A stretch of 64,000 bases of DNA, taken from contig NZ_CP041352.1 of NCBI RefSeq assembly GCF_009746125.1, forward strand, positions 1,782,436-1,846,435, written 5' to 3'. This document shows positions 7,653 through 62,946 of the stretch, piece by piece (the stretch's first letter is position 1; each line of letters starts with the position of its first letter). Both the position numbers and the translations under genes were made by a program. The stretch is from Casimicrobium huifangae (lineage in GTDB: Bacteria > Pseudomonadota > Gammaproteobacteria > Burkholderiales > Casimicrobiaceae). Below the pieces are notes generated by a model that was not told the origin of the DNA, made no database searches, and saw only the letters and a program-made list of their open reading frames with translations.

Positions 7653-7713
7653 CAGCTTTTTCGGGAAACGCCCATTTCACTGGGGCTCGGGCCTCAAAAC
7701 CGCGTAAGTCGAT
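7653..7713 (-). repeat. Palindromic intergenic repeat, copy P1 (one clear arm)
   Basis: Read on the minus strand, this starts at the TCGA core (7709-7712), contains GCCC and ATGGGC hairpin halves and ends in GAAAAAGCTG. It matches one arm of the repeat seen at six other sites. The opposite arm would run into the end of the convergent gene at 7759 and is hardly recognisable. It lies between two convergent genes, so it is not a simple promoter. Confidence 0.7.
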
Positions 7714-7758
7714 GCCCGAAGCGGACAAGCCGCGCGTGGCGACCAAACCGGTGCGGGC

Positions 7759-8871
7759 CTACTTTGACTTGGCGGGTTCGGCGGCGATGTCGTCGGCCGC
7801 TGCGGCCGCTGGCGCACGCGGGCGAATGGCCAGATAGGCGACAGCGAACGCGACCGCCAGAAACCCGCAAAGCATCATCATCGCCGCAGTGTCACGGTGT
7901 AGAGCGACGGCGAGCACCGCCGTGACGCCGGACACACAGACGATCACCGCGCTGGCCAGGTTGCGGCCGACACGACCGAAACGCTGCACCAGACGCTGTG
8001 CCAGCAGGGTGTGCAGGTGGTCCGCGTCCGGCGCCATGATCGGGCGCCCGGTGGCCAGCCGCCGCACGATGGCGGCCGTGGTGTCAGCGAACGGGTAAAG
8101 CACCAGCGCGAACACGAACCACGGGCTGACGTCGACGTGGCGATGGCACAGCAGGATGGCAAACAGGCTGATCGCGGAGCCGAGCAGATAGGCGCCGCCG
8201 TCGCCCGCGAACAGTCGGGCACGCGGGAAGTTGAAGATGGCAAAGCCGGTAGTTGCGGCCGCCAGCGACGCGGTAGCCACCATGAGGAACTGGTCGCCGT
8301 GCCGCCACGCCACCCACGACATGGCCGCGCAGGCGGTGATGGCCAGGCCGGCGAGCAGGCCGTTCAGTCCGTCCGCCAGGTTGTAGGCATTGGCAATGGC
8401 GCCAACGCAGAACAGCGTCAGCACGAACTGAGCGAGGGGCGAAGCGGCCAGCAGCGCGTCAAGCGGCGGCACCGCGAAGCGGCTCAGCGCCGCTTCGCAG
8501 AAGTAGTAAGCGATACCAGCGCCGACAAAGGTTGCCAGAAGCCGCAAGCGCGCCCCGAATGACTTGGTGACATCCTCAATCAGGCCGGCAGCGAAGGGAA
8601 CGAACAGCGCCAGAATCAACCAGCCGTTGAACCAGGGCGGCGCATTGGTGCCATTGTCGGCGGGCAATTGCACGCGGGCGGCCACCACCGCCAGCGCAAA
8701 TCCGGCCATGACGGCAATACCGCCGACGCGCGGCGTTGCCCGTTCATGCAGCTTTTGTGGCCCGGCACCGGGCGCGTCTGCCGTGATCGCGCCGTGCCAA
8801 CGCGTGGTCAGCACCAAGAGCAGCGCTGTCGAGAACGACGCAAGAAAGGCAACCAGTAGCGTTGTGATCAA
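7759..8871 (-). CDS. Glycosyl-phosphate transferase family 4 (WecA/MraY/WbpL-like)
   Basis: Multi-spanning membrane enzyme (370 residues, about ten hydrophobic segments) predicted to transfer a sugar-1-phosphate from a UDP-sugar to undecaprenyl phosphate and so start glycan assembly. Visible family motifs: P-R-V-G-G near residue 47, N-A-Y-N-L-A-D-G-L-N-G-L, F-A-G-D-G-G, and P-D-A-D-H-L-H. The usual first Asp-Asp pair (as in WecA) reads Glu-Asp here. It starts with TTG at 8871 and runs convergent to the fucose cluster, which it probably serves. The sugar cannot be named. Confidence 0.85.
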   Translation of the reverse strand: MITTLLVAFLASFSTALLLVLTTRWHGAITADAPGAGPQKLHERATPRVGGIAVMAGFALAVVAARVQLPADNGTNAPPWFNGWLILALFVPFAAGLIEDVTKSFGARLRLLATFVGAGIAYYFCEAALSRFAVPPLDALLAASPLAQFVLTLFCVGAIANAYNLADGLNGLLAGLAITACAAMSWVAWRHGDQFLMVATASLAAATTGFAIFNFPRARLFAGDGGAYLLGSAISLFAILLCHRHVDVSPWFVFALVLYPFADTTAAIVRRLATGRPIMAPDADHLHTLLAQRLVQRFGRVGRNLASAVIVCVSGVTAVLAVALHRDTAAMMMLCGFLAVAFAVAYLAIRPRAPAAAAADDIAAEPAKSK

Positions 8872-9089
8872 TTACTGCCCTCAAGCGCGCGGCGACTATT
8901 GCCGCGCCGTCATGTCCTGCCAGCCTTCCGCCTTGCCCTACGGTCTTATCGCCGCTGCCGTGACGCTGCTGCCAGTGAGCGCAAGCGTGAGATCGCGAGT
9001 CGGCGCCGGGTGGCAACGGCCCTTTGTGGGGTTCGGGCCCAAGGGGACCGAAGGGGGCCGATGGCTGACCATCTTTACAAATGCAAAGG

Positions 9090-9872
9090 CTACCCCGTTT
9101 GGCTGCCAACAACAAGCAAAGCAAGGGATTCCGTGGCGTTGCGCGGCGCGATGTTGCAGATTTCGGCGCTGCGACCGTCGGCCAGGGTGACTTCGGCGCC
9201 GGCAACGAGGTCCGTCGCCGGCAGGGAAACGACTTCGGTGTGCCGCTTCACCGCACCACGATAGTGGGCGCGGGCGACCACCTCCTGTCCAGGGTAGCAG
9301 CCTTTGCTGAAACTCACCCCGCCGCCTGGCGTGACCTGATCCCAACCGATCATCTGCGGCACAAAGCGCTCGCTGGTGGTGGCGGTGATTTCAGGCTGCA
9401 TGGCGTTGATGCCGGCAAGCGCCCAGCGTTGCATGAAATCGGCGGCGTCAGCGGCCGATGGCGTTGCCGCCAACGTAGGTTCGCTAGCTGATTCCAGGGT
9501 GATCCAGCGCCCATTGCCCAACGCCAGTGTGGCGACGGTGCCTGCCACGACAGCCGGATCCGCGAGGTGCAGGCGAACCACGAGGTCATCGGGCGCAGCA
9601 ATGTCCAGCTTAGAGCGCAGCCGGTACATGGTCAGGCGTTTACTGATCGGCGCCGCCAGCGAGCGGTGGACGACCGCTACGTATTCGGCCGCGTCGACAC
9701 GGATTAGCGCGAAGGTTGCCAGCAGACGACCCCTTGCTGAGCAGTATCCCTGCCATTGCCAGGCGCCAGGCGCGAGCGCATCAACGTCGTTGGTGAGTTG
9801 CGATTGCAGGAAAGCCGCAGCGTCCGGGCCGGAAAAGCGGAGGATTTGATGTTCAGGTGAGAGCAGGTGCAT
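9090..9872 (-). CDS. ygfZ: Folate-binding protein YgfZ (tRNA-modifying / Fe-S maintenance)
   Basis: 260-residue GcvT-like protein with the signature K-G-C-Y-P-G-Q-E near residue 190, whose Cys is required in E. coli YgfZ for folate-dependent maintenance of certain Fe-S enzymes such as MiaB. It opens with the expected F-L-Q-S-Q-L-T-N-D-V segment. It is shorter than the E. coli protein (326), with a trimmed C-terminal barrel. It starts at ATG 9872 and is divergent from rpsB, with a palindromic repeat and the rpsB leader between. The stretch 8872-9089 next to it shows no gene or site. Confidence 0.88.
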   Translation of the reverse strand: MHLLSPEHQILRFSGPDAAAFLQSQLTNDVDALAPGAWQWQGYCSARGRLLATFALIRVDAAEYVAVVHRSLAAPISKRLTMYRLRSKLDIAAPDDLVVRLHLADPAVVAGTVATLALGNGRWITLESASEPTLAATPSAADAADFMQRWALAGINAMQPEITATTSERFVPQMIGWDQVTPGGGVSFSKGCYPGQEVVARAHYRGAVKRHTEVVSLPATDLVAGAEVTLADGRSAEICNIAPRNATESLALLVVGSQTG

Positions 9873-9944
9873 GGTCGGTACCGCAAGACAGCAGCCGGAA
9901 TTTAGCCCATTTGGGGGCAGACAGGCCCGAAGACAGGCGAGATA

Positions 9945-10063
9945 TGGCTACTTCGTATAAAGCCCGGTTTAATCAGGGCTTGGAGGCCTGTTTGCAGCTA
10001 TCTCGACAATTAACGAAAATGACGCTTTAGCCAAGAAAGAATAAGGCTTTCGGCAAAAAGCTG
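9945..10063. repeat. Palindromic intergenic repeat, copy P2
   Basis: About 119 bases centred on TCGA at 10003-10006. The right arm runs through GAAAAT, an AGCC...GGCT pair and ends GGCAAAAAGCTG. The left arm, read on the minus strand, has CCAAGCCCTGATTAAACCGG (a hairpin) and a decayed end. It lies between the divergent ygfZ and rpsB genes and is visibly richer in A and T than the flanking genes. Confidence 0.75.
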
Positions 10064-10139
10064 TCTCTCCGTGCGACGCTGATGTGGCGCGCTGTGCATC
10101 GCGCGCAGGTCGGACGGTGCGCAGCGGGCGTTTCCGGGC

Positions 10140-10169
10140 TATAATTATTGGCTGTCCTATTTCAGGACA
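10140..10169 (+). promoter_or_regulatory. Probable rpsB promoter -10 box and leader hairpin
   Basis: TATAAT at 10140-10145 is a perfect -10 hexamer about 125 bases upstream of rpsB; no good -35 hexamer is visible. Just after it, TGTCCT (10153-10158) and AGGACA (10164-10169) form a six-base-pair stem with a five-base loop at the start of the predicted transcript. This could be a leader element for S2 autoregulation, but that is inference. Confidence 0.5.
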
Positions 10170-10268
10170 AATCCACACACTCGCACCGATCTGATGGGTG
10201 TTCGCGCGGTTCGCAGGAATCCGTGGCAAACGCAGCGAGTGGAGGTTAAACCCACCAGGAGACAATTT

Positions 10269-11024
10269 ATGTCCGCAACCATGCGCCAGATGCTGGAGGC
10301 CGGTGTTCATTTCGGCCACCAAACGCGTTTCTGGAACCCGAAGATGGCTCAGTACATCTTTGGCGCCCGCAACAAGATTCACATCGTCAACCTCGAGAAG
10401 ACGATGGAGAAGTACAACGAAGCCATGACCTATGTTCGCCGTCTGGCGGCGAACCGTGGCACCATCCTGTTCGTCGCTACCAAGCGCCAGGCCCGCGAGA
10501 TCATCGCTGAAGAGGCGAAGCGCGCTGGCATGCCCTACGTCGACAACCGCTGGCTCGGCGGCATGATGTCGAACTTCAAGACCATCAAGGGCTCGCTCAA
10601 GCGTCTGAAAGAGCTGGAGACGATGCAGAACGACGGCACCTTTGATCGCATGTCGAAGCGCGAAGCACTGACGCTCAAGCGCGAGTTCGACAAGCTGATG
10701 ACCTCGATGGGCGGCATCAAGGACATGGTTTCGCTGCCGGACGCGCTGTTCATCATCGACGTCGGCTACCAGAAGATCGCCGTGCAGGAAGCCAACAAGC
10801 TGGGCATTCCGGTGGTCGGCGTGGTTGACACCAATCACACGCCGGATGGCGTCGATTACGTGATCCCCGGCAACGACGACTCGAGCAAGGCGATCCGCCT
10901 CTACGCCCGCGGCGTGGCTGACGCGATCCTCGAAGGCAAGTCGCAGGCGGTGCAGGAAATCGTGAAGACGCAGACGGAAGAATTCGTCGAAGTCGATCCG
11001 GCTGACCTCGAAGCCAAACAGTAA
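10269..11024 (+). CDS. rpsB: 30S ribosomal protein S2
   Basis: Structural protein of the small ribosomal subunit, 251 residues. The sequence [15 protein letters not shown] near the N-terminus and the F-W-N-P-K-M-A segment are diagnostic. ATG 10269 is chosen because AGGAGA lies seven bases upstream and the family N-terminus begins there; the frame is open further upstream. First gene of the translation/envelope run; a 134-base spacer with four hairpins separates it from tsf. Confidence 0.98.
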
Positions 11025-11036
11025 TCCTGGCCGCGT

Positions 11037-11138
11037 GCCCGCTGTAACCATTGCGGGCCGCCCGCCGGAGTAATTCCGGCGGTGACCGGCGTCTGGTCAC
11101 CGTCCAGCCCCAGATTCCGCGTACCCGGCCCGCCGGGT
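11037..11138 (+). other. Four consecutive hairpins in the rpsB-tsf spacer
   Basis: Perfect stems lie in series: GCCCGC 11037-11042 with GCGGGC 11053-11058; CCGCCGGA 11062-11069 with TCCGGCGG 11075-11082; GGTGACC 11081-11087 with GGTCACC 11095-11101; ACCCGG 11123-11128 with CCGGGT 11133-11138. The second and third share two bases, so they compete slightly. None has a T run, so they are more likely RNA-stability or attenuation structures than terminators. Confidence 0.6.
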
Positions 11139-11158
11139 GCGCCCATTCGGAGAAGCAC

Positions 11159-12046
11159 ATGGCAGAAATCTCTGCATCGCTCGTCAAAGAGCTTCGTGAA
11201 ATGACCGGTCTCGGCATGATGGAGTGCAAGAGAGCACTCACCGAAACCGAAGGCGACATCAAAAAGGCCGAAGAGCTGCTGCGCATCAAGTCTGGCGCCA
11301 AGGCATCGAAAGCCGCGTCACGTCAGGCTGCCGAAGGCACGATCGGTGTCTACGTGGCGCCGGACGCCTCGGTCGGCGCGCTGGTTGAGTTCAACTGCGA
11401 GACCGATTTCGCGGCCCGTAACGTTGATCTGCTGGCGATGGCGGCTGCGCTTGCCAAAAGCGTTGCCGAAAACAACCCCGCCGACGTGGCAGCGTTGATG
11501 GCAACCAGCATCGATGGCGAACTGGCAGAAACCCGCCGCGCCGCGCTTGTGCAGAAGGTGGGCGAAAACATGACCGCCCGCCGCTTCGTTCGCGTTGCGG
11601 GCGGCAAGGTCGCCAGCTACATGCACGGCGGTGGCCGCATTGGCGTCCTCGTGGCCTATGAGGGCAACGCCGACATCGCGCGTGACGTGGCCATGCATCT
11701 GGCCGCCTCGGTCGCATCGACCCGCGCGGTTTGCGTGTCGAAAGACCAGGTTCCGGCTGAGCTGATCGAAAACGAGCGCAAGATCTTCGCCGCGCAGGCA
11801 GCCGAGTCGGGCAAGCCGGTCGACATCATCGCCAAGATGGTGGAAGGCCGGATCAACAAATACCTCGCCGAAGTCACGCTGCTGGGCCAGCCCTTTGTGA
11901 AGGACCCGGAGCAGACGGTAGAGAAGGTGCTCAAGGCTGCCAATACGACGATCAAGAGCTTCCAGCTTTACGTCGTCGGCGAAGGTATCGAGAAAAAAGT
12001 GGTGGACTACGCTGCTGAGGTGGCTGCTGCTGCCAAGGGGCTCTAA
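11159..12046 (+). CDS. tsf: Elongation factor Ts
   Basis: Guanine nucleotide exchange factor for EF-Tu, 295 residues. The N-terminal UBA-like region with [11 protein letters not shown] and the core motif [13 protein letters not shown] are unmistakable. ATG 11159 follows CGGAGAAGCAC, where GGAG is a ribosome-binding site. A strong intrinsic terminator follows 27 bases after the stop, so rpsB and tsf form one unit and pyrH has its own start of transcription. Confidence 0.98.
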
Positions 12047-12072
12047 GCCTCCGCCGCACGACGTTGCTGAGA

Positions 12073-12097
12073 ACGGCCCTTCGGGGCCGTTTTTCTT
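12073..12097 (+). terminator. Rho-independent terminator after tsf
   Basis: ACGGCCC (12073-12079), TTCG tetraloop (12080-12083), GGGCCGT (12084-12090), then TTTTCTT. The perfect seven-base-pair GC-rich stem with an extra-stable UUCG loop and a U tract is a textbook intrinsic terminator closing the rpsB-tsf transcript. Confidence 0.93.
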
Positions 12098-12148
12098 GCC
12101 TGTCAGAACACCCACGACGGTAGCGCCCACGCGATAAACTTACGAGTT

Positions 12149-12871
12149 ATGCCCGACGCCAAGCCAGCCTTCCAACGCATCCTTCTCAAACTTTCCGGCG
12201 AAGCCCTGATGGGCGACGATGCCTATGGCATCAATCCGGAGGTAATTGACCGCATCGTCGGCGAGATCAAGGAAGTGTCCCGAATGGGGGTCCAGATCGG
12301 CGTAGTAATCGGTGGCGGCAACATCTTCCGTGGCATCGCTCCCAGCGCTGTCGGCATGGATCGCGCGACTGCGGATTACATGGGCATGCTGGCGACGATC
12401 ATGAACGCGCTGGCGCTCGGCGATGCGCTGCGTCGTGCTGGTGTGGAGGCGCGTGTGCAATCTGCGTTACGCGTCGATGCCGTGGCCGAGCCCTACATTC
12501 GCGGTCGTGCGTTGCGTCATCTGGAGGAGGGCAAGGTGGTGATTTTTGCGGCAGGCACGGGCAATCCGTTCTTCACCACCGACACGGGGGCTGCGCTTCG
12601 TGGCCGCGAAATCAATGCCGATCTGGTGCTGAAGGCCACCAAAGTCGACGGCGTATACACCGCCGATCCGATGAAAGACCCGACGGCAACACGCTACAGC
12701 TCGCTGACCTTCGACGAGGCGATCGTCAAGAACCTGAAGGTGATGGACGCCACCGCACTCGCGCTCTGCCGCGACCAGCAGTTGCGCCTGAACGTGTTCA
12801 GTATCTTCAAACCGGGTGCGCTAAAGCGCGTCATCCTCGGTGAAGACGAAGGTACCACCGTAGTTTGCTGA
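12149..12871 (+). CDS. pyrH: UMP kinase
   Basis: Hexameric bacterial uridylate kinase (EC 2.7.4.22) making UDP from UMP and ATP; 240 residues. K-L-S-G-E-A-L at the N-terminus, the [11 protein letters not shown] glycine loop and the D-x-x-G-M-L-A-T segment fit the amino-acid-kinase fold. It starts at ATG 12149 about 50 bases after the tsf terminator. It precedes frr by 13 bases, as in most proteobacteria. Confidence 0.97.
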
Positions 12872-12884
12872 GAGAGAAACAAAA

Positions 12885-13442
12885 ATGATTGCAGACACCA
12901 AGAAAACAGCCGAACAGAAGATGGCCAAGGCGCTGGAAGCGCTCAAGAACAATTTCGCCAAAGTGCGCACCGGGCGTGCTCACGCGGGTATGCTGGATGT
13001 GGTGCAGGTCGACTACTACGGCGCGATGACACCGATCAACGGCGTCGCCAGCGTCACGCTGCTCGATGCCCGCACTATCGGCGTGCAGCCCTACGAAAAG
13101 AAGATGATCCAGGCGATTGAGAAAGCGATCCGCGAGGCGGACCTTGGCCTCAATCCTTCGGTCAACAGCGACATCATCCGGGTACCGATGCCGATGATGA
13201 GCGAAGAGCGCCGCAAGGAGCTGGTCAAACTGGTCAAGGGTGAAGCGGAGGACGCCCGCGTGGCGATCCGCAATGTCCGCCGCGACGCCAATAATGCACT
13301 TAAGGACGCGCTGAAAGCGAAGACGATCTCGGAGGACGAGGAGCGCCGCGCGCAGGACGACGTGCAGAAGCTGACCGACAAGACGATTGCCGAAGTCGAC
13401 AAGCAGTTCACTGCCAAGGAAGCCGAGCTGATGTCGGTGTGA
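12885..13442 (+). CDS. frr: Ribosome recycling factor
   Basis: Splits post-termination ribosomes together with EF-G; 185 residues, the family length. Recognisable by K-V-R-T-G-R-A-H near residue 27, the I-R-V-P-M-P segment and L-T-x-E-R-R-K-E-L-type helix (here [11 protein letters not shown]). AGAGAGAAAC lies before ATG 12885. Its stop lies inside a GTGA overlap with a possible extended start of uppS. Confidence 0.97.
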
Positions 13443-13486
13443 CGTCAGGCGGTCAAAGCATCATTTTTCGTTCCAAGCCTCAGACC

Positions 13487-14200
13487 ATGTCGGCTGCCTC
13501 AGTGCCTCGCCATATCGCCGTGGTCATGGACGGCAACGGTCGCTGGGCGCAGAAGCGCTTCCTGCCGCGCGTTGCCGGTCACAAGCAGGGGGTTGAAGCG
13601 GTGCGTACGCTGATCCGTGCCGGCAGCGAGCGCGGCGTCGAAGCGCTCACCGTGTTCGCATTCAGCAGCGAGAACTGGCAACGCCCGGCCGATGAGGTGT
13701 CGTTTCTGATGGACCTGTTTCTTCGCGCGCTGCGCGAGGAAGTGCAGAAACTGCACAGCAACAGTGTCCGCTTTCGGGTGGTCGGCGATGTGTCTGTTCT
13801 GGGCGCAGAGACACGGTCGCTGATCGAAGAGGCCGAGGCGCTGACCGCAGCAAACTCCCGGCTTTGCCTGAACGTGGCAGTCAACTACGGTGGGCGGTGG
13901 GATATCGAGCAGGCGGTCGCCAAAGCCACGGCTGCCGGTGAGTCGGCAGCATTCGCGCAGTGGCTGTCGTTTGCCGGCCAGCCGGATCCTGACCTGTTCA
14001 TTCGCACTGGCGGTGAGCGGCGAGTCAGCAACTTCATGCTGTGGCAGTTGGCCTACACCGAGCTCTTTTTCTCGGACATCCTGTGGCCGGACTTTGATGA
14101 AGCGGAGCTTGCGAGCGCACTGGCGTGGTTTGCGGGTCGCGAGCGCCGTTTCGGCAAGACGGGAGAGCAGGTTCGTGTGCTCTCGACAACTCCTGTCTGA
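13487..14200 (+). CDS. uppS: Isoprenyl transferase (undecaprenyl diphosphate synthase)
   Basis: cis-Prenyltransferase making undecaprenyl diphosphate (EC 2.5.1.31), the lipid carrier of peptidoglycan and O-antigen sugars. H-I-A-V-V-M-D-G-N-G-R-W holds the catalytic Asp; F-S-S-E-N-W-x-R-P and D-L-F-I-R-T-G-G-E-x-R-x-S-N-F complete the active site. ATG 13487 gives 237 residues with a short N-terminus before the core; GTG at 13439, overlapping the frr stop, would give 253 residues and coupling. The choice is not settled by a clear ribosome-binding site. Confidence 0.95.
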   Translation: MSAASVPRHIAVVMDGNGRWAQKRFLPRVAGHKQGVEAVRTLIRAGSERGVEALTVFAFSSENWQRPADEVSFLMDLFLRALREEVQKLHSNSVRFRVVGDVSVLGAETRSLIEEAEALTAANSRLCLNVAVNYGGRWDIEQAVAKATAAGESAAFAQWLSFAGQPDPDLFIRTGGERRVSNFMLWQLAYTELFFSDILWPDFDEAELASALAWFAGRERRFGKTGEQVRVLSTTPV

Positions 14201-14212
14201 CGGATCAGGCCG

Positions 14213-15046: not shown

Positions 15047-15050
15047 TCAG

Positions 15051-19998: not shown

Positions 19999-20010
19999 GA
20001 GTTGAAGGCG

Positions 20011-20553: not shown

Positions 20554-20560
20554 GTATCGC

Positions 20561-21568: not shown

Positions 21569-21616
21569 GGTGTAACAGTCGCCGCCTCGCTGGGCAGATT
21601 TGCGAAAATTCAGCGC

Positions 21617-29518: not shown

Positions 29519-29636
29519 CAACCTGACGCCGAAATGACCTTTGCACAGGGCTCAGAGCCAGTAATCTGCAATAAGTCGACTTAAGATAAAAATGCACATG
29601 TAGCCCATATAAAATGGGCGTTTCGACAGAAAGCTG
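29519..29636. repeat. Palindromic intergenic repeat, copy P3 (best core)
   Basis: 118 bases exactly centred on the self-complementary AAGTCGACTT (29573-29582). The right arm has GCCCAT/ATGGGC with a five-base loop (29603-29619) and ends GACAGAAAGCTG. The left arm, read on the minus strand, has GAGCCCTGTGCAAAGGTCAT and ends GTCAGGTTG. Located between two divergent genes. Confidence 0.8.
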
Positions 29637-29830
29637 ATAGTGCCGGCGCAATCTCGCAGGCAATTGGCTCCTGCAGGGCGTGCAGGCGTGCGAGGGTGGT
29701 TCGCTGGATGCGTCGGGGCACCGATGTCCGGCGCGCGGGCGCGGCATAAGGCAAGGCGTGCCGGAGGCTGTCCGCCGCTATCTGCCTGTCCTATACTGCG
29801 CTGAACACAGTCTGAATGGGGCAAAGTGCG

Positions 29831-37046: not shown

Positions 37047-37308
37047 GAATTTCCTTGTGGGGAGAAAGGCAGTAGCGGGAGGAGAAAAACAGGTAGCCCG
37101 GGGTGCAGCACGGTCAGCGGGGCAGCCACGCGAAGGGTGGCGCCGGGGGTGGGAGCAGCATGGCGCTGCGGTCGGAGAAAGAAACCAATTGCATTCAGCG
37201 GGAGCCTTGGACTAAATGTAGCGATGTTTGGCGACGCGGCAAGCGTTCGGCCCGCCATGACTTTGACCAGCCAGCTGGCCGTTGGGTTTTCGCGACAGCC
37301 CTGGACAA
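37047..37308. other. Spacer upstream of phoH
   Basis: Part of a 379-base gap between the PIN-PhoH gene and apbE. I see no gene here; the phoH promoter should lie in it, but no clear hexamer pair is evident. The rest of the gap is taken by repeat copy P4. Confidence 0.4.
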
Positions 37309-37441
37309 CAGCTTTTTTGCAAGAAGCCCATTGGAGCTGGGCTCATGGACTGATTTTGGCGAAAGTCGAGCAAAAATTCGTGCGTTCGGCCTGATTGGCC
37401 GGTCATTGCAATGTCATGAGACGTTTCAGGCGGAAAGGCCG
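37309..37441. repeat. Palindromic intergenic repeat, copy P4
   Basis: The clear arm (37309-37370, read on the minus strand) runs from CTCGACTTTCGCCAAAAT through GAGCCCA and ATGGGC to GCAAAAAAGCTG. The opposite arm continues rightward with GGCCTGATTGGCCGG and GTTTCAGGCGGAAAGG, slightly expanded, and seems to overlap the last codons of apbE. The right boundary is uncertain. Confidence 0.65.
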
Positions 37442-41856: not shown

Positions 41857-41962
41857 TATCGTTTGCGTCCCCCGATCGCTCCCGCCATTATGCCAATGGG
41901 ATTGCTGTCAAAGCGCATTGGTGCGAACCTTCAATGCGTGACACGATCAGTATTGACCAGAT

Positions 41963-42079
41963 CAGCTTTTCGGTCAAAGTACCATTTGATAAGGGCTTGG
42001 TGGTCATAATTGCCGAAATCGACATTGAGTGAAATTGGCCGTTTAGCCCAATGAAAATCGGCTTTTATGCAAAAAGTTG
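41963..42079. repeat. Palindromic intergenic repeat, copy P5 (both arms clear)
   Basis: 117 bases centred on TCGA 42019-42022. The minus-strand arm runs GTCGATTTCGGCAATTATG through CCAAGCCC and AAATGG to CCGAAAAGCTG. The plus-strand arm runs TCGACATTGAGTGAAAT through TTTAGCCCA and AATCGGC to GCAAAAAGTTG. It sits between the divergent apbE operon and the sugar dehydrogenase gene, so both promoters lie in or beside it. Confidence 0.8.
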
Positions 42080-42141
42080 ATGATCGCGAAGGCCTCATTC
42101 TTTCCTTGCACTGCCAATGACGATGTCATATGGTTGCGTAC

Positions 42142-50260: not shown

Positions 50261-52003
<1,743 letters not shown>

Positions 52004-52032
52004 GGCCAGGGCCCACGGCAAGCAGGACTACC

Positions 52033-53037: not shown

Positions 53038-53076
53038 CCTCCTAGGCTCACTGCCGCGCGCTACGGGAAGCACGCA

Positions 53077-53192
53077 ACACCGCTCACAAGACGCGGCATT
53101 GCAACGAGGTTGCGTGCCAAATTTGCGCAAAGTCGACTTGATCGAAAATTCCGTTCCAAGCCCTTTTTAACCGTCGTTTCAGCAAAAAGCTG
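53077..53192. repeat. Palindromic intergenic repeat, copy P6
   Basis: About 116 bases centred on AAGTCGACTT (53130-53139). The right arm has GAAAATTCCGTTCCAAGCCC and GTCGTTTCAGCAAAAAGCTG. The left arm keeps GTCGACTTTGCGCAAATTTG (minus strand), then decays. Located 89 bases upstream of exbB, so the exbB promoter lies to its right; TTACA/TGTAA (around 53233-53250) is a small inverted repeat there. Confidence 0.75.
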
Positions 53193-53280
53193 TACAGCCA
53201 AAGTGGCTACATTCAAACGGCCAAATGGCGAGTTACACTGCACGCTGTAATCACCAATCTGACGAGCGAGACTGCGCTTC

Positions 53281-54305: not shown

Positions 54306-54345
54306 CCTGGCCGCGGTGTAGCCGCAACCCAGCACATTTGCCATC

Positions 54346-55467: not shown

Positions 55468-55486
55468 ATTTCCGCGACCCCCCCAT

Positions 55487-55684
55487 ATGGCCATCGACCC
55501 CAAACTGCTTGAGATCCTCGTGTGTCCCGTCACCAAGGGGGCACTGATTTATGACAAAGGCAGGCAGGAGCTCATCTCAAAGTCGGCACGTCTTGCCTAC
55601 CCGATTCGCGGAGACATTCCCGTGATGCTCGAAGAGGAAGCGCGCAAGCTCTTGGCAGAAGAGATCGAGGCGTTGGCGTCCTGA
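55487..55684 (+). CDS. Trm112 family protein (YcaR-like)
   Basis: 65-residue small protein with [17 protein letters not shown] and [12 protein letters not shown], diagnostic of Trm112/YcaR. The zinc-binding Cys residues of many relatives are reduced here to one (C-P-V-T instead of C-P-x-C), so metal binding is unlikely. Bacterial function is not settled. It sits between lpxK and kdsB, its usual place. Confidence 0.9.
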
Positions 55685-55731
55685 TCAGGGACAGTCCAGT
55701 TCGCCACCCAGCACAGAGCACAGTACGAGAT

Positions 55732-56493: not shown

Positions 56494-56499
56494 CGGGTA

Positions 56500-56922
56500 T
56501 TACTCCGGCAGCGGCGTCACTTTTTTGATGTAGTAGCGCGTTTCGCCGAAGCAACTGGTCGGCAGTCCGACCTTCTCCTCGTAGTGCAGCGTGACGCGGC
56601 GGCCGACATTGCGGTTGATGGACGCAGCGACGCCGTCATCCCACACAGTGAAGAAGAATTTCTCCGGCAGCGCGCCGGGTAGCACCACCATGTTCAGCTC
56701 TCCCTCCCACGTCTTGCAGACCCAGCCCTTACGCGAGAATTTCTGCACGACGCCTGCGCGTTCGCCCTCCGAGTAGCTCCACTTCCAGACGATCATGCCG
56801 TAGACGCCTGCCAGCACGACAACGATGAGCAGCACCGCCAGCAGCGGCAGGATGAAGCCGCGTCCACGCTGGCCGCGCCACGACGCCGGTTTTCGGACAA
56901 ATCGCAAAGGCTTTTTCATCAT
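56500..56922 (-). CDS. Conserved single-pass membrane protein of unknown function
   Basis: 140 residues: basic N-terminus (K-K-P-L-R-F-V-R-K), one strong helix (I-L-P-L-L-A-V-L-L-I-V-V-V-L-A), then a soluble domain with W-K-W-S-Y-S-E-G-E-R-A-G, G-W-V-C-K-T-W-E-G-E-L and a late F-G-E-T-R-Y-Y segment. Similar proteins occur widely in betaproteobacteria without known function. ATG 56922 or 56919 (tandem Met); the frame is open to 56955. Confidence 0.75.
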   Translation of the reverse strand: MMKKPLRFVRKPASWRGQRGRGFILPLLAVLLIVVVLAGVYGMIVWKWSYSEGERAGVVQKFSRKGWVCKTWEGELNMVVLPGALPEKFFFTVWDDGVAASINRNVGRRVTLHYEEKVGLPTSCFGETRYYIKKVTPLPE

Positions 56923-57071
56923 GTGGGAGTGGCAAAGAAAGCGCTTTTGAGACATAATATAGGCCGTTGAAAATACAACGCTTTATTGAATCGCCTCAAT
57001 TGCATTCGTGTCATGGTTTTTACACGAAGCGCGTCTTTTGAGCATTTGATGGCGCGTAACTCAGGGTGACG

Positions 57072-57317
57072 ATGTCTATGCTCGATCCGAATCAGATCGC
57101 CAAATTTCGTCAACAAACCGCGACACCGCGCAAACGCTCGGTGGCCGGTAGTTGGACACGGCTCTGCGGAACCTGCAAGCAGCCTGCCATCATCCGTGGC
57201 GGCAAGACGCGCAAAGTCGGTGGTCGCACCGTCTTTACCTGCGCCGGGTGCTTGACCAAACTCCTCGAAAAACCGGACGACGGCGCAACCGTCAAGACCG
57301 GCACCGGCGGCGAATAG
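57072..57317 (+). CDS. Small zinc-ribbon-like protein
   Basis: 81 residues. Two Cys pairs, L-C-G-T-C-K and F-T-C-A-G-C, spaced about 23 residues, with a basic G-G-K-T-R-K-V-G-G-R between, suggest a zinc ribbon that may bind nucleic acid. No family recognised. ATG 57072 is preceded by CAGGGTG; GTG 57066 and ATG 57078 are alternatives. The 116-base leader contains small hairpins (GTTG/CAAC and TTCGTGT/ACACGAA, the latter at about 57006-57029). The 216 bases after it hold no feature I can name. Confidence 0.65.
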   Translation: MSMLDPNQIAKFRQQTATPRKRSVAGSWTRLCGTCKQPAIIRGGKTRKVGGRTVFTCAGCLTKLLEKPDDGATVKTGTGGE

Positions 57318-57533
57318 CACCACCGGACTTGCTGCCGCTCGCACAGCGAACGGCGGAAACAAATCACGCTCGCCTCGTGCTGATCGTCCGAATCAGCACG
57401 GTCTGGCTGTGCCTGACGCGTTGGACGGTCGCCAATTTCACGCTAGCTGGTCGCCACGCTGCGCACCATATTGATGCGCGGCGATGGTGGCGGTGAGAGG
57501 TGCGGCACCGCATCGCCGCACGCCCCTGCCAAC

Positions 57534-58505
57534 TTAGTCTGCGTAGGCCTTGGCTGCCTGGATAATCGGTGCCCACTTGCCGATTTCAGCGCTCAGCAGC
57601 GCCTTGGCGCCAGCGGAAGTCTGGCGATCAGGCGGCATGATTTCGGCGCCCAGGTCCTTCATCTTGGCGAGGAAAGCTGGGTCCTTGATGGCCGTTTGCA
57701 GCGCGCCCTGCAGTTTGCCCACGACGTCGGCCGGGGTGTTTTTCGGCGCGTAGAGGATGTGCCATACGCCAACCTCAAAGCCGGGCAACTCGGTCGCCAG
57801 CGGAGGCAGCTCGGGGAAGTTGGCGAGCTTGCCCTTGCTGGTGACTGCAAACGCCTTTACCTTGCCCGCCTTGATCTGGCCGGTGGTGTTGGTGGTCTGG
57901 TCGCACATGACGTCAACGTTGCCGCCAAGCAGCGCGGTCATCGCCGGGCCGGTGCCCGAGAACGGAACCGTGGTCAGATCGGTCTTCAGCGCACTCTGGA
58001 ACAGCAGGCCGCAAAGGTGCGACGCCGAGCCGATGCCAGCGTTGGCCAGATTGATCTTTTCCTTGTTGGCGCGGATGTAGGCCACCAGGTCTTTGACGTT
58101 CGTCTGTGTGGTCTGCGGCTTGGCAATCAAAGTCATCGGCACATCGACCACGGCGCCAATCGGGATAAAGTCATCCAGCGGCTTGAAGTCGAGCTTGCGA
58201 TACAGCGCCGGCGCGGTTGACATGCCGATGTGATGGAACAGCAGGGTGTAGCCGTCGCCCTGGGCGCGAGCGACCTTGCCGGCGCCGATGGTGCCACCGG
58301 CACCACCAACGTTCTCCACGACCAGCGTGCCCTTCAACGGGCCGCTCATGGCCTGCGACAGGGTGCGGGCGACGACATCGGTGGGGCCGCCAGCGGCGAA
58401 CGGGACGACCACCGTGATCGGCTTTTCAGGGTAGGCCGCCACTGCGACCGAACTCGCCACGGCGAGGCTCACCAGCGTGGCAAGCGTCGAGAGTCTCTTC
58501 AGCAT
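57534..58505 (-). CDS. Bug-family tripartite tricarboxylate transporter substrate-binding protein
   Basis: Second TctC/Bug periplasmic receptor, 323 residues. GGAG lies eight bases before ATG 58505, followed by a signal peptide (L-K-R-L-S-T-L-A-T-L-V, cut near V-A-A). Y-P-E-K-P-I-T-V-V-V-P-F-A-A-G-G-P-T-D and V-P-F-S-G-T-G-P are the two ligand loops. It has two Cys (S-H-L-C-G and V-M-C-D-Q), seen in some family members. No transporter membrane genes nearby. Confidence 0.93.
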   Translation of the reverse strand: MLKRLSTLATLVSLAVASSVAVAAYPEKPITVVVPFAAGGPTDVVARTLSQAMSGPLKGTLVVENVGGAGGTIGAGKVARAQGDGYTLLFHHIGMSTAPALYRKLDFKPLDDFIPIGAVVDVPMTLIAKPQTTQTNVKDLVAYIRANKEKINLANAGIGSASHLCGLLFQSALKTDLTTVPFSGTGPAMTALLGGNVDVMCDQTTNTTGQIKAGKVKAFAVTSKGKLANFPELPPLATELPGFEVGVWHILYAPKNTPADVVGKLQGALQTAIKDPAFLAKMKDLGAEIMPPDRQTSAGAKALLSAEIGKWAPIIQAAKAYAD

Positions 58506-58582
58506 TTGTGATTTCTCCATTGGATTGATTGTTATGGGCCGGGAATACAACGCCACGGTTCACGCGCTGGCTGACTCCACGG

Positions 58583-60043
58583 TCATTGTTGCGAGCCGGT
58601 CTTGATCTGCCAAGCGGGTTTCCACTGGCAGCAAAAGCCTCTCCCGCCGGCCTCTGTAGCATGCGGTGCGGCGCGCACTGTATAGGCGGAAGCTGTCGCA
58701 ACGCTAGCGACTGCTGCAACTTCGTTGTTGCAGATCAACAGCGGCCACATGCTGCGCTGCCACGGCGGGATACCAGCGTTCTGCATGACGTTCTTGATCG
58801 ACACATGACCGGAGCGCTCGGACAGCGCGATGCGGTCGCCGGGCTGCCGCCGCCGCACCAGCCAGTGTTCGCCTGGCTGCGGTGGTCGCAGCACCAAGGT
58901 TTCATCGGCAGCGCCGGCAACGAACTCCACGCTGCCGCAATGGCCACCCAACGAGAGGCTGGGTTCCCCGGTCCACGGCATCGCCGGCCAGGCCTCTTGC
59001 GGCCACGCGAGCTGCAGACGATCACGATAGACGATCACATCGGGCATCAGATTGCCAGCGCGTAGACGGATAGCCTGCGTCGGGTTGTTTGTCCCGAGCT
59101 GGCGCAGCCATTCATGCAGGGTGTTCTCGGCAACGGCTGCAATGGCATGCCTTGCCAGCCAGTAGCGCAGCACATTCGCCTGCCGCGCTGGCGACAGGCG
59201 CTGCAACCGCGAAACGACCAGTTCCTGCTCATGGTCTTCACCCGAGTCGCCATCGGTGCTGCTGATTGTGGCCAGGTCAATCGCCGCCAGATCATCCAGC
59301 AGCTCGGCCGCCTCGGCCTGCAGACCGCTGGCACGGGCAAGCGTGCGTTCGGCGGACGGGAAGGCTTCAACCAGCACCGGCCAGACGGCATGACGCAAGC
59401 GGTTGCGGGCAAAGCGCTGGTCGCCATTACTGTCGTCGTCAATCCAGGTGAGCCCGCATCGCGTCGCGTAGGCCGCAATCGCAGAGTGGGGAAGCGCCAG
59501 CAGCGGGCGTGAATACAGGTCACCGTCTTTCGCTGGCATCGCTGCCAGCCCGGCCGGACCAGCTCCCCGCAACAACTGCAACAGCACGGTCTCAGCCTGG
59601 TCGCGGGCGTGATGGGCGAGGGCGATGATCGTGGCACCGGATGCTGGTTTCGATTGGTCGCCTGTCGCTCCCGCCTGCAGTGCCGCATAGCGTGCGTCAC
59701 GCGCCGCCGCCTCAATGCCGCGTGGATCGTTGCGATCGACATGCACGCGACTGACCGCGAGCGGCACCTTCAGCGCACAGCAGACCGCTTCGCAATGCGC
59801 CACCCAGGCATCCGCGTTGAGACTGAGGCCGTGATGCACATGATGCGCCTGCAACGCCCAGCTGGTGTCATCGCGGCGAGCTTCGTGCAGCGCGTGCAAG
59901 AGGACGATGGAATCACGGCCCCCCGAGAGTGCCACTCGCACCCGTGTCAGCCCGCCGGCGCGGGAACGCCAGCGATGCAGCGCGGCGGCTACGGCGGAAC
60001 GAACGGCGTTTGCGGGATCAGGAGCCGGCTTTGAAGGCGCCAT
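58583..60043 (-). CDS. tilS: tRNA(Ile)-lysidine synthase
   Basis: Converts C34 of tRNA-Ile(CAU) to lysidine (EC 6.3.4.19), 486 residues. PP-loop A-L-S-G-G-R-D-S near residue 37, then [32 protein letters not shown], and the TilS substrate-binding and C-terminal domains. ATG 60043 overlaps the end of accA by 26 bases, the normal accA-tilS coupling; the frame is open to 60061. Confidence 0.95.
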
Positions 60044-60986
60044 AGTCGGCCAGCCGCGCACGGCGCAGCGCCAGGCGCTTGTCTGGCGTCAATGCCTTGA
60101 GCTTTTCGAGTTCACTGGCGAGCACCTTTTTCAGGTTGCCCATCATCGCCACCGGGTCGCGATGGGCGCCGCCAGCAGGCTCCGGGACGATGTGATCGAT
60201 CAGACGCAGGGCCTTTAGCCGGTCCGCCGTGATGCCCATGCACTCGGCGGCATCAGGCGCGCGCTCGGCGCTCTTCCAGAGGATTGAGGCGCAGCCTTCC
60301 GGCGAGATCACCGAATAGGTGGCGTATTGCAGCATCGCGGTGACGTCACCAACGGCAACGGCCAGCGCGCCACCGGAGCCACCTTCGCCAATGATGGTGA
60401 CGATGATTGGCGACTTGATCTGTGCCATCTCGAACAGGTTGCGGCCGATCGCTTCGGACTGGCCGCGCTCCTCGGCGCCGACGCCAGGGTAGGCGCCCGG
60501 CGTGTCGACAAAGGTGAAGATCGGAAGCGCGAATTTGTCGGCGAGCTTCATCAGGCGCAACGCCTTGCGGTAGCCCTCGGGGCGGGGCATGCCCCAGTTG
60601 CGCAACACTTTCTCCTTAGTGTCGCGACCTTTTTGGTGGCCGATCACCATGCAACTCTGGCCGTCAAACTTGGCCAGTCCGCCGACGATGGCCGCGTCGT
60701 CGGCATAGGCGCGGTCGCCATGCAGCTCGACGAAATCGGTGAACAGGCCGTTGGCGTAGTCCAGCGTGTAGGGCCGCTGTGGATGTCGCGCTACCTGCGC
60801 GATCTGCCACGGCGTGAGCTTGGCGTAGATCGACTTGTTGAGGTCAGCGAGCTTTTTGGTGAGCTTTTTGACTTCGTCGGAGACGTCGAGCTGGTCAACG
60901 CCGTGGTGCAACTCGGTCAGTTCATCGATTTTTGTTTGCAGCTCGGCCAGCGGCTGCTCGAAATCGAGGTAGGTTTGTTTTGCCAT
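60018..60986 (-). CDS. accA: Acetyl-CoA carboxylase carboxyltransferase subunit alpha
   Basis: Makes malonyl-CoA with AccD (EC 2.1.3.15), 322 residues. Y-L-D-F-E-Q-P-L near the start, coiled-coil N-terminal helix, G-D-R-x-Y-A-D-D, [19 protein letters not shown] and [10 protein letters not shown] form the carboxyltransferase site. ATG 60986 gives the standard M-A-K-x-T-Y-L-D-F-E start; the frame is open to 61007. Confidence 0.97.
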
Positions 60987-61058
60987 GGCCGCGATTGTAG
61001 TGGGCAAAGCGCAGCCTAAGACATTTCCGGTTTTGTCTGATTTTTCGCTGACAAGCTC

Positions 61059-61415
61059 CTACGGCGCACTGTCCTTTTGCCTGGGTGCCAGCAGCCCGTT
61101 GGCGCGCGATTCGGGTACCGGCGCGAAGCGCGCCACCAGCATCATCAGCCCGGAGAAGATCATCAACAGCGGAATGATCAGTCGCGAACGCCATCCAAGA
61201 TCAAAGTAGCCGTACCAGCCGATGCCGATGGCAATCAGGATCGGGCCGGCGACCAGCGACTTCTTGGTGATGCCATCGAGCACCAGAATCGCGATGCCGG
61301 CAACCACCAGTGCAATGGCGACCAGCGTGTTCCAGTCCGGAATCCAGCCGTAGTTCCAGCCGAGCAGGGCGAGCCCGCCGGCGATCAGTACGACGGGCAA
61401 GGTGGCGTCGCGCAT
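61059..61415 (-). CDS. Small membrane protein (LiaF-like transmembrane region)
   Basis: 118 residues with about four hydrophobic helices arranged as two hairpins: L-P-V-V-L-I-A-G-G-L-A-L-L-G-W-N and V-A-I-A-L-V-V-A-G-I-A-I-L-V-L-D, then I-L-I-A-I-G-I-G-W and L-I-I-P-L-L-M-I-F-S-G. The G-x-x-L-L-x-x-N and G-x-x-I-x-x-G-x-x patterns recall the LiaI/LiaF-like or DUF5668 membrane domain. Function unknown. It lies between accA and a GNAT gene on the same strand. Confidence 0.65.
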   Translation of the reverse strand: MRDATLPVVLIAGGLALLGWNYGWIPDWNTLVAIALVVAGIAILVLDGITKKSLVAGPILIAIGIGWYGYFDLGWRSRLIIPLLMIFSGLMMLVARFAPVPESRANGLLAPRQKDSAP

Positions 61416-61559
61416 GCGTTGTGATCCTGTTTTCGTGAGCAGGCAAATCTGCGCGGCGGATTGTCGCTACTTTGCGATGTCCCCGCAATCGGGGCAGGGC
61501 GGTAGCGGATTGCGCTACTGGCCGTTGCGCCTGACGGTACGCAGCCAACGCAGCGGCGG

Positions 61560-62096
61560 CTACAGCGCCTTGTAGAAGTAGGTGGTGTCGCAAAAGCCAC
61601 CCTGCGGCCATAGCGCATAGTTCGGGATCACGCCGCACTTTTGCCAGCCGAGGCGCGCATAGAGGCGCTCGGCGTCGCCGCCGGTGACGGTATCGAGCAC
61701 CAGCAACGATTTGTCGCTGTCGCGACCGAGCTGCTCTGCCGCTCGCATCAGTGCCTCGCCCAGCCCGCGCCGGCGTCCGCGGCGGTGCACCAGCATCTTC
61801 GCCAGATCGGCGCGATGCGGCTGGTTCTCCGGCAAATCAAAAACCAGTTGTACCGTGCCGACAATGCCGGCCTCGTCCTCCGCCACCAGAAGGGCGCGCT
61901 CGTCGCGCGCGACGCCGTCGGCAACCCGTTGCCAGAACGCCAGCGCCCGCTCGCGGCTGAGCGGCAGCATGAAGCTGACCGAGGCGCCGCCTTCGACGCA
62001 ATCGACGAGCACGTCCGCCAGTCCGGCCAAGTCGGCGGGGCTCGGTGCCATCGGACGGCGGATGGTGATGGTTGTTGGCGCGGCGGTGGCAGGCAT
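61560..62096 (-). CDS. GNAT family N-acetyltransferase
   Basis: 178 residues with the acetyl-CoA-binding loop V-H-R-R-G-R-R-R-G-L-G-E-A-L-M near 130 and the C-terminal A-E-R-L-Y-A-R-L-G-W. It starts one base after the stop of the XRE-cupin regulator, so the two are an operon. Such regulator/acetyltransferase pairs are common and may act on small amines; the substrate is unknown. Confidence 0.9.
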   Translation of the reverse strand: MPATAAPTTITIRRPMAPSPADLAGLADVLVDCVEGGASVSFMLPLSRERALAFWQRVADGVARDERALLVAEDEAGIVGTVQLVFDLPENQPHRADLAKMLVHRRGRRRGLGEALMRAAEQLGRDSDKSLLVLDTVTGGDAERLYARLGWQKCGVIPNYALWPQGGFCDTTYFYKAL

Positions 62097-62097
62097 G

Positions 62098-62772
62098 TCA
62101 TCTCCGGGGAGGTGCAGGTAGCGTCGCGATCACGACGGCGTAGCGCGTCGTATCGGCGGTGGGATTGTGGAAGGCGACCGGCCGGTCGAGTGCGAAGGCC
62201 AGGCAGTCGCCGCTGTCTAGCTGATGCGTCTCGTCGCCGACCGTGATCTGCATGGCGCCATCCAGCACCCACACCTGCTGATGCACAGCGACGTCGCGGG
62301 CCGCCGTTTCATAGGCGACGCGCGCGCCGGCGGGGAAGGCAACATCGACGATCTGGATTGGCGACTGCATCAGTCCGCTTGAGGTGCTTGCCATTTCTGG
62401 CGAGACGTTGCGTCGCAGGTAACCGGAATTGGGGTCGCGCCAGCGTGCCTGATCGGCGCGGCGGGCAAGCGTGGCGGTGTGATCCGCTTGACCGTTGACG
62501 GTGGGTGCATCGAACAGCGCTGCCAGCACTACATTGAGCCCGGTGGCGATTTTTTCGAGAACGACTGCTGTCGGGCTCGCCTCGTTGCGCTCGATCAGCG
62601 AAATCATCGAGCGGCTGACGCCGCTGCGCGTGGCGAGCGCCTCCAGCGACATGCGTTGTGCCGTGCGCAGGCCGTGTATGCGCTGGGCAATGCGGGCCGA
62701 CAAGCCGCTGCTCTCGTCCTCTCTGGCGGGCCCGGCTGGTTCGTTGGCTCGGCGGATAGTGTCGTCTTGCAT
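62098..62772 (-). CDS. XRE-family transcriptional regulator with cupin domain
   Basis: 224 residues: N-terminal helix-turn-helix (R-I-A-Q-R-I-H-G-L-R ... A-T-R-S-G-V-S-R-S-M-I-S-L-I-E-R, about 35-80) and a C-terminal cupin (about 130-215) with A-V-H-Q-Q-V-W-V-L-D-G and L-D-S-G-D-C-L-A-F that should bind a small ligand. ATG 62772 is chosen because promoter and operator elements occupy the bases just upstream; longer in-frame starts (62805, 62793, 62790) would lie inside them. Probably represses its own operon. Confidence 0.88.
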   Translation of the reverse strand: MQDDTIRRANEPAGPAREDESSGLSARIAQRIHGLRTAQRMSLEALATRSGVSRSMISLIERNEASPTAVVLEKIATGLNVVLAALFDAPTVNGQADHTATLARRADQARWRDPNSGYLRRNVSPEMASTSSGLMQSPIQIVDVAFPAGARVAYETAARDVAVHQQVWVLDGAMQITVGDETHQLDSGDCLAFALDRPVAFHNPTADTTRYAVVIATLPAPPRR

Positions 62773-62810
62773 GATGGAATAAATATCCATCATGATGGAA
62801 TTCAAGTCAA
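62770..62810 (-). promoter_or_regulatory. Promoter and operator of the XRE-GNAT operon
   Basis: On the minus strand, -35 TTGACT (62805-62810) and -10 TATTTA (62780-62785) enclose a 19-base spacer. The perfect palindrome TCCATCATGATGGA (62786-62799) lies within it. A further half-site ATGATGGA (62771-62778) overlaps the start codon. Three alternating copies of the same eight bases make a convincing autorepressor site. The -10 box is so close to ATG 62772 that the mRNA may be leaderless. Confidence 0.72.
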
Positions 62811-62830
62811 GTGCGACAGGAGTGATTCAC

Positions 62831-62946
62831 TGACTTTTGCTGAAGATGACGTTTCAATGCGGCGCGCAGACAAGAAATGTATCAAGTCGACTATTTGCCT
62901 AATCGCGTCTGAGCCCACATTGAACGATGGTTTCAAAGAAAAGCTA
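62831..62946. repeat. Palindromic intergenic repeat, copy P7
   Basis: 116 bases centred on AAGTCGACTA (62884-62893). The right arm has TGAGCCCACATTGAACGATG and GTTTCAAAGAAAAGCTA. The left arm, on the minus strand, ends CATCTTCAGCAAAAGTCA, so both outer ends are recognisable at equal distance from the core. It lies between the XRE promoter and the methyltransferase 3' end. Confidence 0.75.

What the first reader, a model, noticed from the sequence alone, without database searches (positions are those of the whole stretch)
7653..62946. A family of about 118-bp double-hairpin palindromes occupies seven intergenic sites
P1 7653-7713, P2 9945-10063, P3 29519-29636, P4 37309-37441, P5 41963-42079, P6 53077-53192 and P7 62831-62946 share one plan. 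The core is (AA)GTCGAC(TT); on each side come an A-rich block, an AGCCC...GGGC hairpin about 30 bases out, and GTTTC then GCAAAAAGCTG at the end. The two arms are inverted copies, and in P3, P5 and P7 the outer ends are equally distant from TCGA. All copies are intergenic, in divergent, convergent and tandem settings, so this is not a promoter class. The ends read as 11-base terminal inverted repeats, as in a MITE, or as a large REP element. Density is about one per 9 kb. I do not recognise it as a named family.
Basis: seen in the sequence. Interest (0 to 1): 0.82.

Follow-up and report, generated by a model that had tools for sequence, protein, structure and literature searches.

The report
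Evenly spaced 122-bp palindromic chromosome sites
Dotted about every 12,000 bases along the chromosomes of one little-studied group of bacteria are hundreds of 122-base mirror-image DNA sites that stay in place while their exact letters drift, which suggests landing sites for a protein that bends or wraps DNA rather than jumping DNA.

Summary
A model built from 12 copies outside the window finds all seven sites (E 2.4e-9 or better) and nothing in the reversed window. P1 is a half-site; P4 and P6 each have one decayed arm. The unit is a 122-bp two-fold-symmetric DNA element, roughly 320-360 copies per genome by extrapolation. With model R1, 16 of 17 same-genus genomes matched (own included) and 0 of 43 others.

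The MITE/REP reading is not supported: no two of 85 copies exceed 67% identity, no target-site duplication, no copy beside four Y1-transposase-like loci. Of 30 sites syntenic with relative G011, 22 have a copy in the same gap; low-information positions there are nearly saturated, yet the motif persists. Arms do not covary as hairpins. Genome G002 keeps the A/T profile (r 0.76) while letters change. Spacing is more even than random in two G000 regions.

Best reading: a maintained site for a two-fold-symmetric DNA-wrapping complex. Gyrase is the leading but unproven candidate; its periodicity and Mu-site tests were inconclusive.

The parts
7650..7712 (.). P1: left half-element up to the TC|GA centre; right half absent; between convergent genes
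   Evidence: E 2.4e-9 with a profile free of window copies; context
9945..10063 (.). P2: near-full element, centre CTCGAC, between divergent genes upstream of a gene I take for rpsB (name inferred from its place beside tsf)
   Evidence: E 6.5e-14; same place occupied in L113 and L116, missing in G011
29519..29640 (.). P3: full element, centre GTCGAC, between divergent genes
   Evidence: E 4.8e-23; G011 counterpart at C79:320876
37307..37441 (.). P4: good left arm, decayed right arm; tandem genes
   Evidence: E 1.1e-9 over 37309-37406; G011 half-site counterpart
41961..42082 (.). P5: full element, centre ATCGAC, between divergent genes
   Evidence: E 2.1e-20; G011 counterpart at C79:331762
53077..53197 (.). 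P6: good right arm, decayed left arm, centre GTCGAC; tandem genes
   Evidence: E 6.2e-16 over 53098-53197; G011 counterpart at C79:342906
62829..62946 (.). P7: full element, centre GTCGAC; tandem genes
   Evidence: E 6.4e-15; G011 counterpart at C79:352670

Best explanation
The element is a 122-bp two-fold-symmetric DNA site, kept by selection, on which a symmetric protein complex wraps or bends DNA. It is read largely through alternating A/T-rich and G/C-rich blocks rather than exact letters. Roughly 320-360 such sites, on average 12-14 kb apart and more even than chance, sit mostly just past stop codons and probably help partition or service chromosome supercoiling. The most likely protein is DNA gyrase: a central gate segment with both arms wrapped on the GyrA C-terminal domains. 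Shown: family, symmetry, place conservation, motif constraint, A/T-profile conservation between G000 and G002, even spacing in G000, 3'-end preference, a six-repeat GyrA C-terminus in the genome. Inferred: wrapping, the protein's identity, the supercoil role. My probabilities: maintained protein-bound DNA site about 0.75; wrapping or bending about 0.5; gyrase about 0.3.
For: Orthologous G000/G011 pairs (20 pairs): identity 76% at 52 high-information columns but 36% at 33 low-information columns, against 73% and 30% for non-orthologous pairs. 22 of 30 syntenic G000 sites have a G011 site in the same gap; of the other 8, 6 lie in gaps where G000 has 2 kb or more of extra DNA, one where G011 has extra DNA, and one is P2. 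AT profiles of 85 G000 and 39 G002 copies correlate r 0.76 over d1-62 and 0.77 over d41-62, outside the 77-nt G002 profile; most of those copies were first found with the full-length R1, but the 7 that were not still give 0.67 and 0.62 (11 of 10000 permutations as high for d41-62). Letters change, e.g. d4 T 0.85 to A 0.60, with A+T 0.99 and 0.96. Spacing: region A CV 0.66 (89 of 5000 random intergenic draws as even), region D, named before its spacing was computed, CV 0.53 (4 of 5000); full-length sites only: A 122, D 1, G011 154 of 5000; 40 separate 20-kb stretches, variance/mean 0.43, lower-tail p 0.0007. 3' gaps median 23 nt, 5' gaps 127 nt; in D 36 and 128. The E. coli gyrase motif is 130 bp, symmetric, with GC-periodic arms (PMC6379681, passages); gyrases of three species share 10-11 bp GC periodicity over about 120 bp (PMC12324340, passages). 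G000 has six DNA_gyraseA_C matches in one 867-aa frame.
Against: Within the arms (d17-62) the strongest period is 7.35 bp in G000 and G011 and 7.3 in G002, with 10.2, 9.85 and 10.65 second; over d1-62 7.85 bp leads in G011. E. coli gyrase has 10.75. The Mu gyrase site lies only at the 90th-95th percentile of Mu at its exact dyad, 83rd for the arms alone and 67th for the core; its left arm is at the 54th-66th; by log-odds it ranks 1790 of 36593. The preferred C at d6 is not met (T 0.63), though T at d4 is. Gyrase is universal, yet the family is confined to one genus. With all sites G011's spacing is not significantly even by CV (694 of 5000). D was not unseen: one search had listed hits in it and part of it was in the earlier sample. 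The gene caller was my own and crude.
Confidence: 0.45

Rival explanations
1. Sites of an unidentified, lineage-specific, sequence-reading nucleoid or boundary protein (not gyrase) that co-evolves with its sites, such as a roadblock or insulator at gene ends.
For: Restriction to one genus and absence in G016; near-invariant letters at d1-2 and d27-28; consensus drift in G002; 3'-end position; 79 bits of information where about 14 would locate the sites.
Against: No candidate protein found or searched for; A/T class is conserved better than letters. The 79 bits could partly reflect shared ancestry.
Confidence: 0.3
2. An old non-autonomous mobile element (MITE-like) with target immunity, now immobile; the even spacing reflects immunity when it spread.
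For: A 122-bp sequence is unlikely to arise repeatedly by point mutation, so copying must have spread it (inference); inverted ends; some sites present in one species and missing in another, e.g. P2, an L112 copy after tsf, a G011 copy at C79:99662.
Against: No TSD, no young copies, strongly conserved centre, motif kept at near-saturated orthologous sites, Y1-transposase-like loci not associated.
Confidence: 0.17
3. Bidirectional transcription terminator or 3'-end RNA element.
For: Position just past stop codons; 14 of 31 convergent gaps occupied against 39 of 236 others, p 5.6e-4; terminator-like signal in 19 of 85 elements against 16 of 255 shuffles and 17 of 193 control gaps. One orthologous pair keeps an identical GC hairpin plus T run.
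Against: No covariation in arm stems (excess at most 0.055) or across arms (29.8 of 61 mirrored pairs against 28.3 expected); 66 of 85 lack a terminator-like signal; convergent excess not clear in region D (5 of 19 against 27 of 136) or G011 (3 of 12 against 25 of 99).
Confidence: 0.1
4. REP/BIME-type element moved by a RAYT transposase.
For: Inverted arms, intergenic, high copy.
Against: Four Y1_Tnp-like loci (three over Pfam's cut-off) carry no element within 1.5 kb; hairpins not maintained; single units, not clusters.
Confidence: 0.02

Closest known systems
DNA gyrase binding motif and strong gyrase sites of E. coli and phage Mu (PMC6379681, passages seen)
   Same: About 120-130 bp, symmetric about a centre, core plus two arms, alternating A/T and G/C, apparent indirect readout
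   Different: Main arm period about 7.35 bp here with about 10 bp second; a much sharper motif; high-copy and genus-restricted; no binding data; Mu site match inconclusive
ERIC/IRU elements of enterobacteria (127 bp; PMC2229807, passages seen)
   Same: Length, imperfect palindrome, intergenic, high copy
   Different: That review lists ERIC with TSD and TA termini and describes such repeats' transcripts as stable stem-loops; here no TSD and no maintained stems. Sequence similarity to ERIC was not tested
REP/BIME (BIME-2 is bound and cut by gyrase; PMC6379681, passages seen)
   Same: Intergenic palindromic family, possible gyrase link
   Different: Unit three to six times longer than a 20-40 bp REP (size from the abstract of PMC3733652 in a search listing), single rather than clustered, no maintained hairpin, no RAYT link found
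Correia/NEMIS, RUP and other small MITEs (PMC2229807, passages seen)
   Same: About 100-160 bp, inverted ends, high copy
   Different: No TSD, no recent copies, conserved centre, conserved positions across species

Membership tests
MITE | Terminal inverted repeats | tested here: met
   Symmetric arms, ends ATCAGCTTTT/AAAAGCTGAT
MITE | Target-site duplication | tested here: not met
   106 elements, 1000 length/offset combinations, best z 2.71
MITE | Recent, near-identical copies | tested here: not met
   Maximum 67% identity among 85 copies, 3570 pairs
MITE | Autonomous partner transposon with the same ends | not tested
   Only Y1-transposase-like loci were checked; no survey of insertion sequences
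REP/BIME-RAYT | Conserved hairpin with compensatory changes | tested here: not met
REP/BIME-RAYT | RAYT gene flanked by the repeats | tested here: not met
   0 of 4 Y1_Tnp-like loci, +-1.5 kb
ERIC | About 127-bp imperfect palindrome, intergenic | tested here: met
   122 bp, symmetric; 55 of 64 with no gene overlap
ERIC | Sequence homology to ERIC | not tested
   No ERIC sequence was compared
Strong gyrase site | About 130-bp symmetric site with central segment and two arms | tested here: met
   against PMC6379681 (passages)
Strong gyrase site | 10-11 bp G/C periodicity in the arms | tested here: inconclusive
   7.35 bp strongest, 10.2 bp second in G000; 7.3 and 10.65 in G002
Strong gyrase site | Profile picks out the known Mu site | tested here: inconclusive
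   Exact dyad: both arms 90th-95th percentile, right arm 90th-98th, left arm 54th-66th; rank 1790 of 36593 by log-odds
Strong gyrase site | Gyrase binding and cleavage in vivo | not testable with these tools
   Needs Topo-Seq or ChIP
Rfam RNA family | Match to a curated family | tested here: not met
   0 matches at gathering threshold in the window

The most novel reading that the evidence does not exclude
A bacterial genus has hard-wired its chromosome with several hundred dedicated, shape-read gyrase (or gyrase-like wrapping) sites at near-regular spacing of about 12 kb, close to the roughly 10-kb supercoil domains described for enterics, conserved in place by selection while their letters drift: a genome-encoded ruler for supercoil domains.
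Probability: 0.25. Interest if true: 0.9.

Novelty: new variant of a known kind. Interest (0 to 1): 0.72.

Why it matters
Families of bacterial intergenic palindromes are usually read as selfish or relic mobile DNA. This one is kept in place at near-saturating divergence, keeps its base-composition profile while its letters drift, and is spaced more evenly than chance. If it binds gyrase or another wrapping protein, the old question whether supercoil domains are encoded in sequence becomes directly testable, with hundreds of natural replicates per genome.

Tried and rejected
RNA or cruciform structure: RNAalifold found 0 pairs on a 17-copy alignment, single-strand folds of the seven were near shuffled (z -1.35 to +0.52), and pairing tests were negative; the strong mutual information reflects a 1-nt slide of the outer block. 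TSD scan: negative. RAYT link: negative. Rfam: none in the window. BLAST of P3 against phages: no match. Mu strong-gyrase-site test: inconclusive; higher percentiles at +1/+2 offsets and on the right arm were noticed afterwards and are not counted as a hit. Orthology with G002 could not be tested: the contig region fetched shares only limited synteny with G000. A G002-based model gives 1 marginal match (E 0.004) in 31 genomes of other genera. Literature: the listings of searches show no title or abstract start describing such a family in this genus; most subscription papers are not held, so this is weak evidence of novelty.
Full report
1. Is it there? Yes. A profile from 12 copies lying elsewhere in the genome recovers 7 of 7 window sites at E 2.4e-9 or better and none in the reversed window; the iterated profile gives 0 hits in 20 block-shuffled windows. 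In 864 kb (the window plus 40 evenly placed 20-kb stretches) it finds 64 sites, 57 of them outside the window, and 0 in the reversed sequence. Two contiguous regions of G000, A (464 kb including the window) and D (400 kb), hold 38 and 32 sites. These densities extrapolate to roughly 320-360 per 4.47-Mb genome.

2. Anatomy. Of 130 distinct sites from G000 and the relative G011, 109 are 115-122 bp long. The consensus is ATCAGCTTTTTGCTGAAAGCCCCATTGAATAAGGGCTTAAAGGCCAAAATTGCCAAAAGTC|GACTTTTGGCAAATTTGCCCTTTGAGCCCAAATCGAATGGGGCTTTCAGCAAAAAGCTGAT. With d counted from the dyad and arms pooled over 123 copies (7 of 130 with weak centres left out), G1 and A2 are 0.96, C27 and C28 0.93, T44 0.89, A53-54 0.90-0.93; at d13-14 A+T is 0.97-0.98 while A and T are about equally common. 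The information totals 79 bits over 85 full G000 copies, where about 14 bits would locate 320 sites. The outer block (about d25-58) appears to slide by 1 nt as a unit against the core: its columns share most of the strong mutual information (the reading is mine).

3. Not RNA, not a cruciform. The best excess of paired cells over shuffles for any 4-bp arm stem is 0.055; the registers with the highest pairing have none (0.61 and 0.60 against 0.63 and 0.62 expected). Mirrored positions of the two arms pair 29.8 times of 61 against 28.3 expected.

4. Where it occurs. Titles of the closest tsf relatives are betaproteobacterial, Burkholderiales or proteobacterial MAGs, the tenth a Casimicrobiaceae MAG; I infer that G000 belongs to or near that family. 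With R1, 16 of 17 same-genus genomes (G000 included) match and 0 of 43 genomes of other genera, under the stricter filters used for large searches. G016 has none even at E<=10 (150 of 162 candidates scored), while G008, a 2.5-Mb genome, has 25 strand-wise matches. With a model from G002 (R2), 8 of 9 same-genus genomes sampled match and 1 of 31 others, marginally at E 0.004.

5. Conserved in place. Over the stretch syntenic between G000 and G011 (blocks over 600 bp are 72-92% identical), 22 of 30 G000 sites have a G011 site in the same gap between alignment anchors, two of them sharing one G011 site. Of the eight others six lie in gaps where G000 has 2 kb or more of extra DNA, one in a gap where G011 has extra DNA, and P2 is plainly missing from G011. 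Conversely 22 of 25 G011 sites have a G000 counterpart. The P2 place is also occupied in L113 and L116. In 20 orthologous pairs (one double and one split case left out), high-information columns are 76% identical and low-information columns 36%; non-orthologous pairs give 73% and 30%. By simple arithmetic only about 9% of neutral identity is left, so an unconstrained motif would match the consensus at about 0.44 of the high-information columns; observed 0.85 and 0.81 (inference). Selection is the simplest reading. Repeated replacement at the same place is not formally excluded, but no copy has a close relative (maximum identity 67% among 85).

6. Shape rather than letters. In G002 the consensus has drifted (centre still TCGA, then T/A steps; CTAGCCC instead of GAGCCC). 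Its A/T profile still correlates with that of G000 at r 0.76 over d1-62 (39 G002 copies) and 0.77 over d41-62, outside the 77-nt G002 profile used for finding and centring. Because 32 of the 39 were first found with the full-length R1, I repeated this with the other 7: r 0.67 and 0.62 (11 of 10000 permutations as high for d41-62). A/T maxima fall at d 4, 13, 23, 35, 45, 54, 60 in G002 and 5, 14, 23, 32, 37, 45, 53, 60 in G000. Over d1-62 the leading period is 9.8 bp in G000 and 10.0 in G002; in G011 it is 7.85 with 9.8 second. Of 85 single G000 copies, a fraction 0.56 exceeds 95% of shuffles in 9.6-11 bp A/T power.

7. Position and spacing. In the 864-kb sample 55 of 64 sites overlap no predicted gene, 8 overlap by 30 nt or less and 1 by 39 nt. 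Gaps to stop codons have median 23 nt, gaps to start codons 127 nt; A gives 36 and 141, D 36 and 128, G011 59 and 99. Convergent gaps are occupied in 14 of 31 against 39 of 236 others in the sample; A gives 8 of 13 against 29 of 135, but D 5 of 19 against 27 of 136 and G011 3 of 12 against 25 of 99, so this part is not firmly replicated. Spacing: after seeing underdispersion (variance/mean 0.43 over 40 stretches; CV 0.66 in A) I named region D (note) before computing its spacing, though one search had already listed hits there and some of its stretches were in the earlier sample. D gave CV 0.53; random choice of intergenic gaps was as even in 4 of 5000 draws, length-weighted choice in 0 of 5000. 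For A the numbers are 89 and 9; for G011 (CV 0.75) 694 and 573, not significant. Gaps under 4 kb: A 2 of 37 (8.8 expected), D 2 of 31 (7.8), G011 2 of 28 (7.1). Mean spacing is 12.2, 12.5 and 12.4 kb. With full-length sites only, draws as even are 122, 1 and 154 of 5000 for A, D and G011. Supercoil domains of 10 kb are mentioned in the abstract start of PMC3420936 (search listing).

8. Mechanism. A long, symmetric, centre-conserved site whose A/T profile is kept better than its letters fits a two-fold complex that wraps or bends DNA. The E. coli gyrase motif is the closest described: 130 bp, symmetric, a central 36 bp and two 47-bp arms with 10.75-bp GC periodicity; BIME-2 elements behave there as transcription-independent gyrase sites (PMC6379681, passages). 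G000 has six GyrA C-terminal repeats in one frame. Against gyrase: arm period 7.35 bp first and 10.2 second, Mu site at only the 90th-95th percentile and lower for arms or core alone (83rd, 67th), no C at d6, and no reason why only this genus would have the family. I therefore hold gyrase at about 0.3 and an unnamed wrapping or boundary protein about as high. Target immunity of an ancient mobile element could also give even spacing and remains a rival.

9. Verdict. By kind it belongs with intergenic palindromic families, but it fails the tested MITE and REP criteria (TSD, young copies, maintained hairpin, RAYT link) and behaves like a maintained chromosomal site. Even spacing, place conservation and profile-level conservation are the surprising parts.

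Noticed in passing
window 1 to about 9243: The start of the window belongs to a segment of about 37 kb with no counterpart at the syntenic place in G011 (gap of 36812 against 974 bases); a sampled stretch just before the window has G+C 0.559 and no element (L078). P1, a half-site, lies near its end beside a family-4 glycosyltransferase gene.
   Followed up: partly
G000:C1:1654480-1654600 (region A 172045-172165) and G011:C79:206057-206176: The right arm here contains an identical GC-rich hairpin followed by TTTT in both species, looking like an intrinsic terminator built from the element.
   Followed up: no
L274, L262, L305 and other G002 loci: Some G002 copies carry an additional short CTAGCCC...GGGCTAG-like inverted repeat outside or overlapping the element, perhaps a separate small repeat of that genome.
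   Followed up: no
G011:C79:196068-196377: Two half-elements about 0.2 kb apart where G000 has one full element, as if split by an insertion or rearranged.
   Followed up: no
L112:10962-11078: An element just downstream of tsf in L112; the window has none there, so gains or losses do occur.
   Followed up: partly
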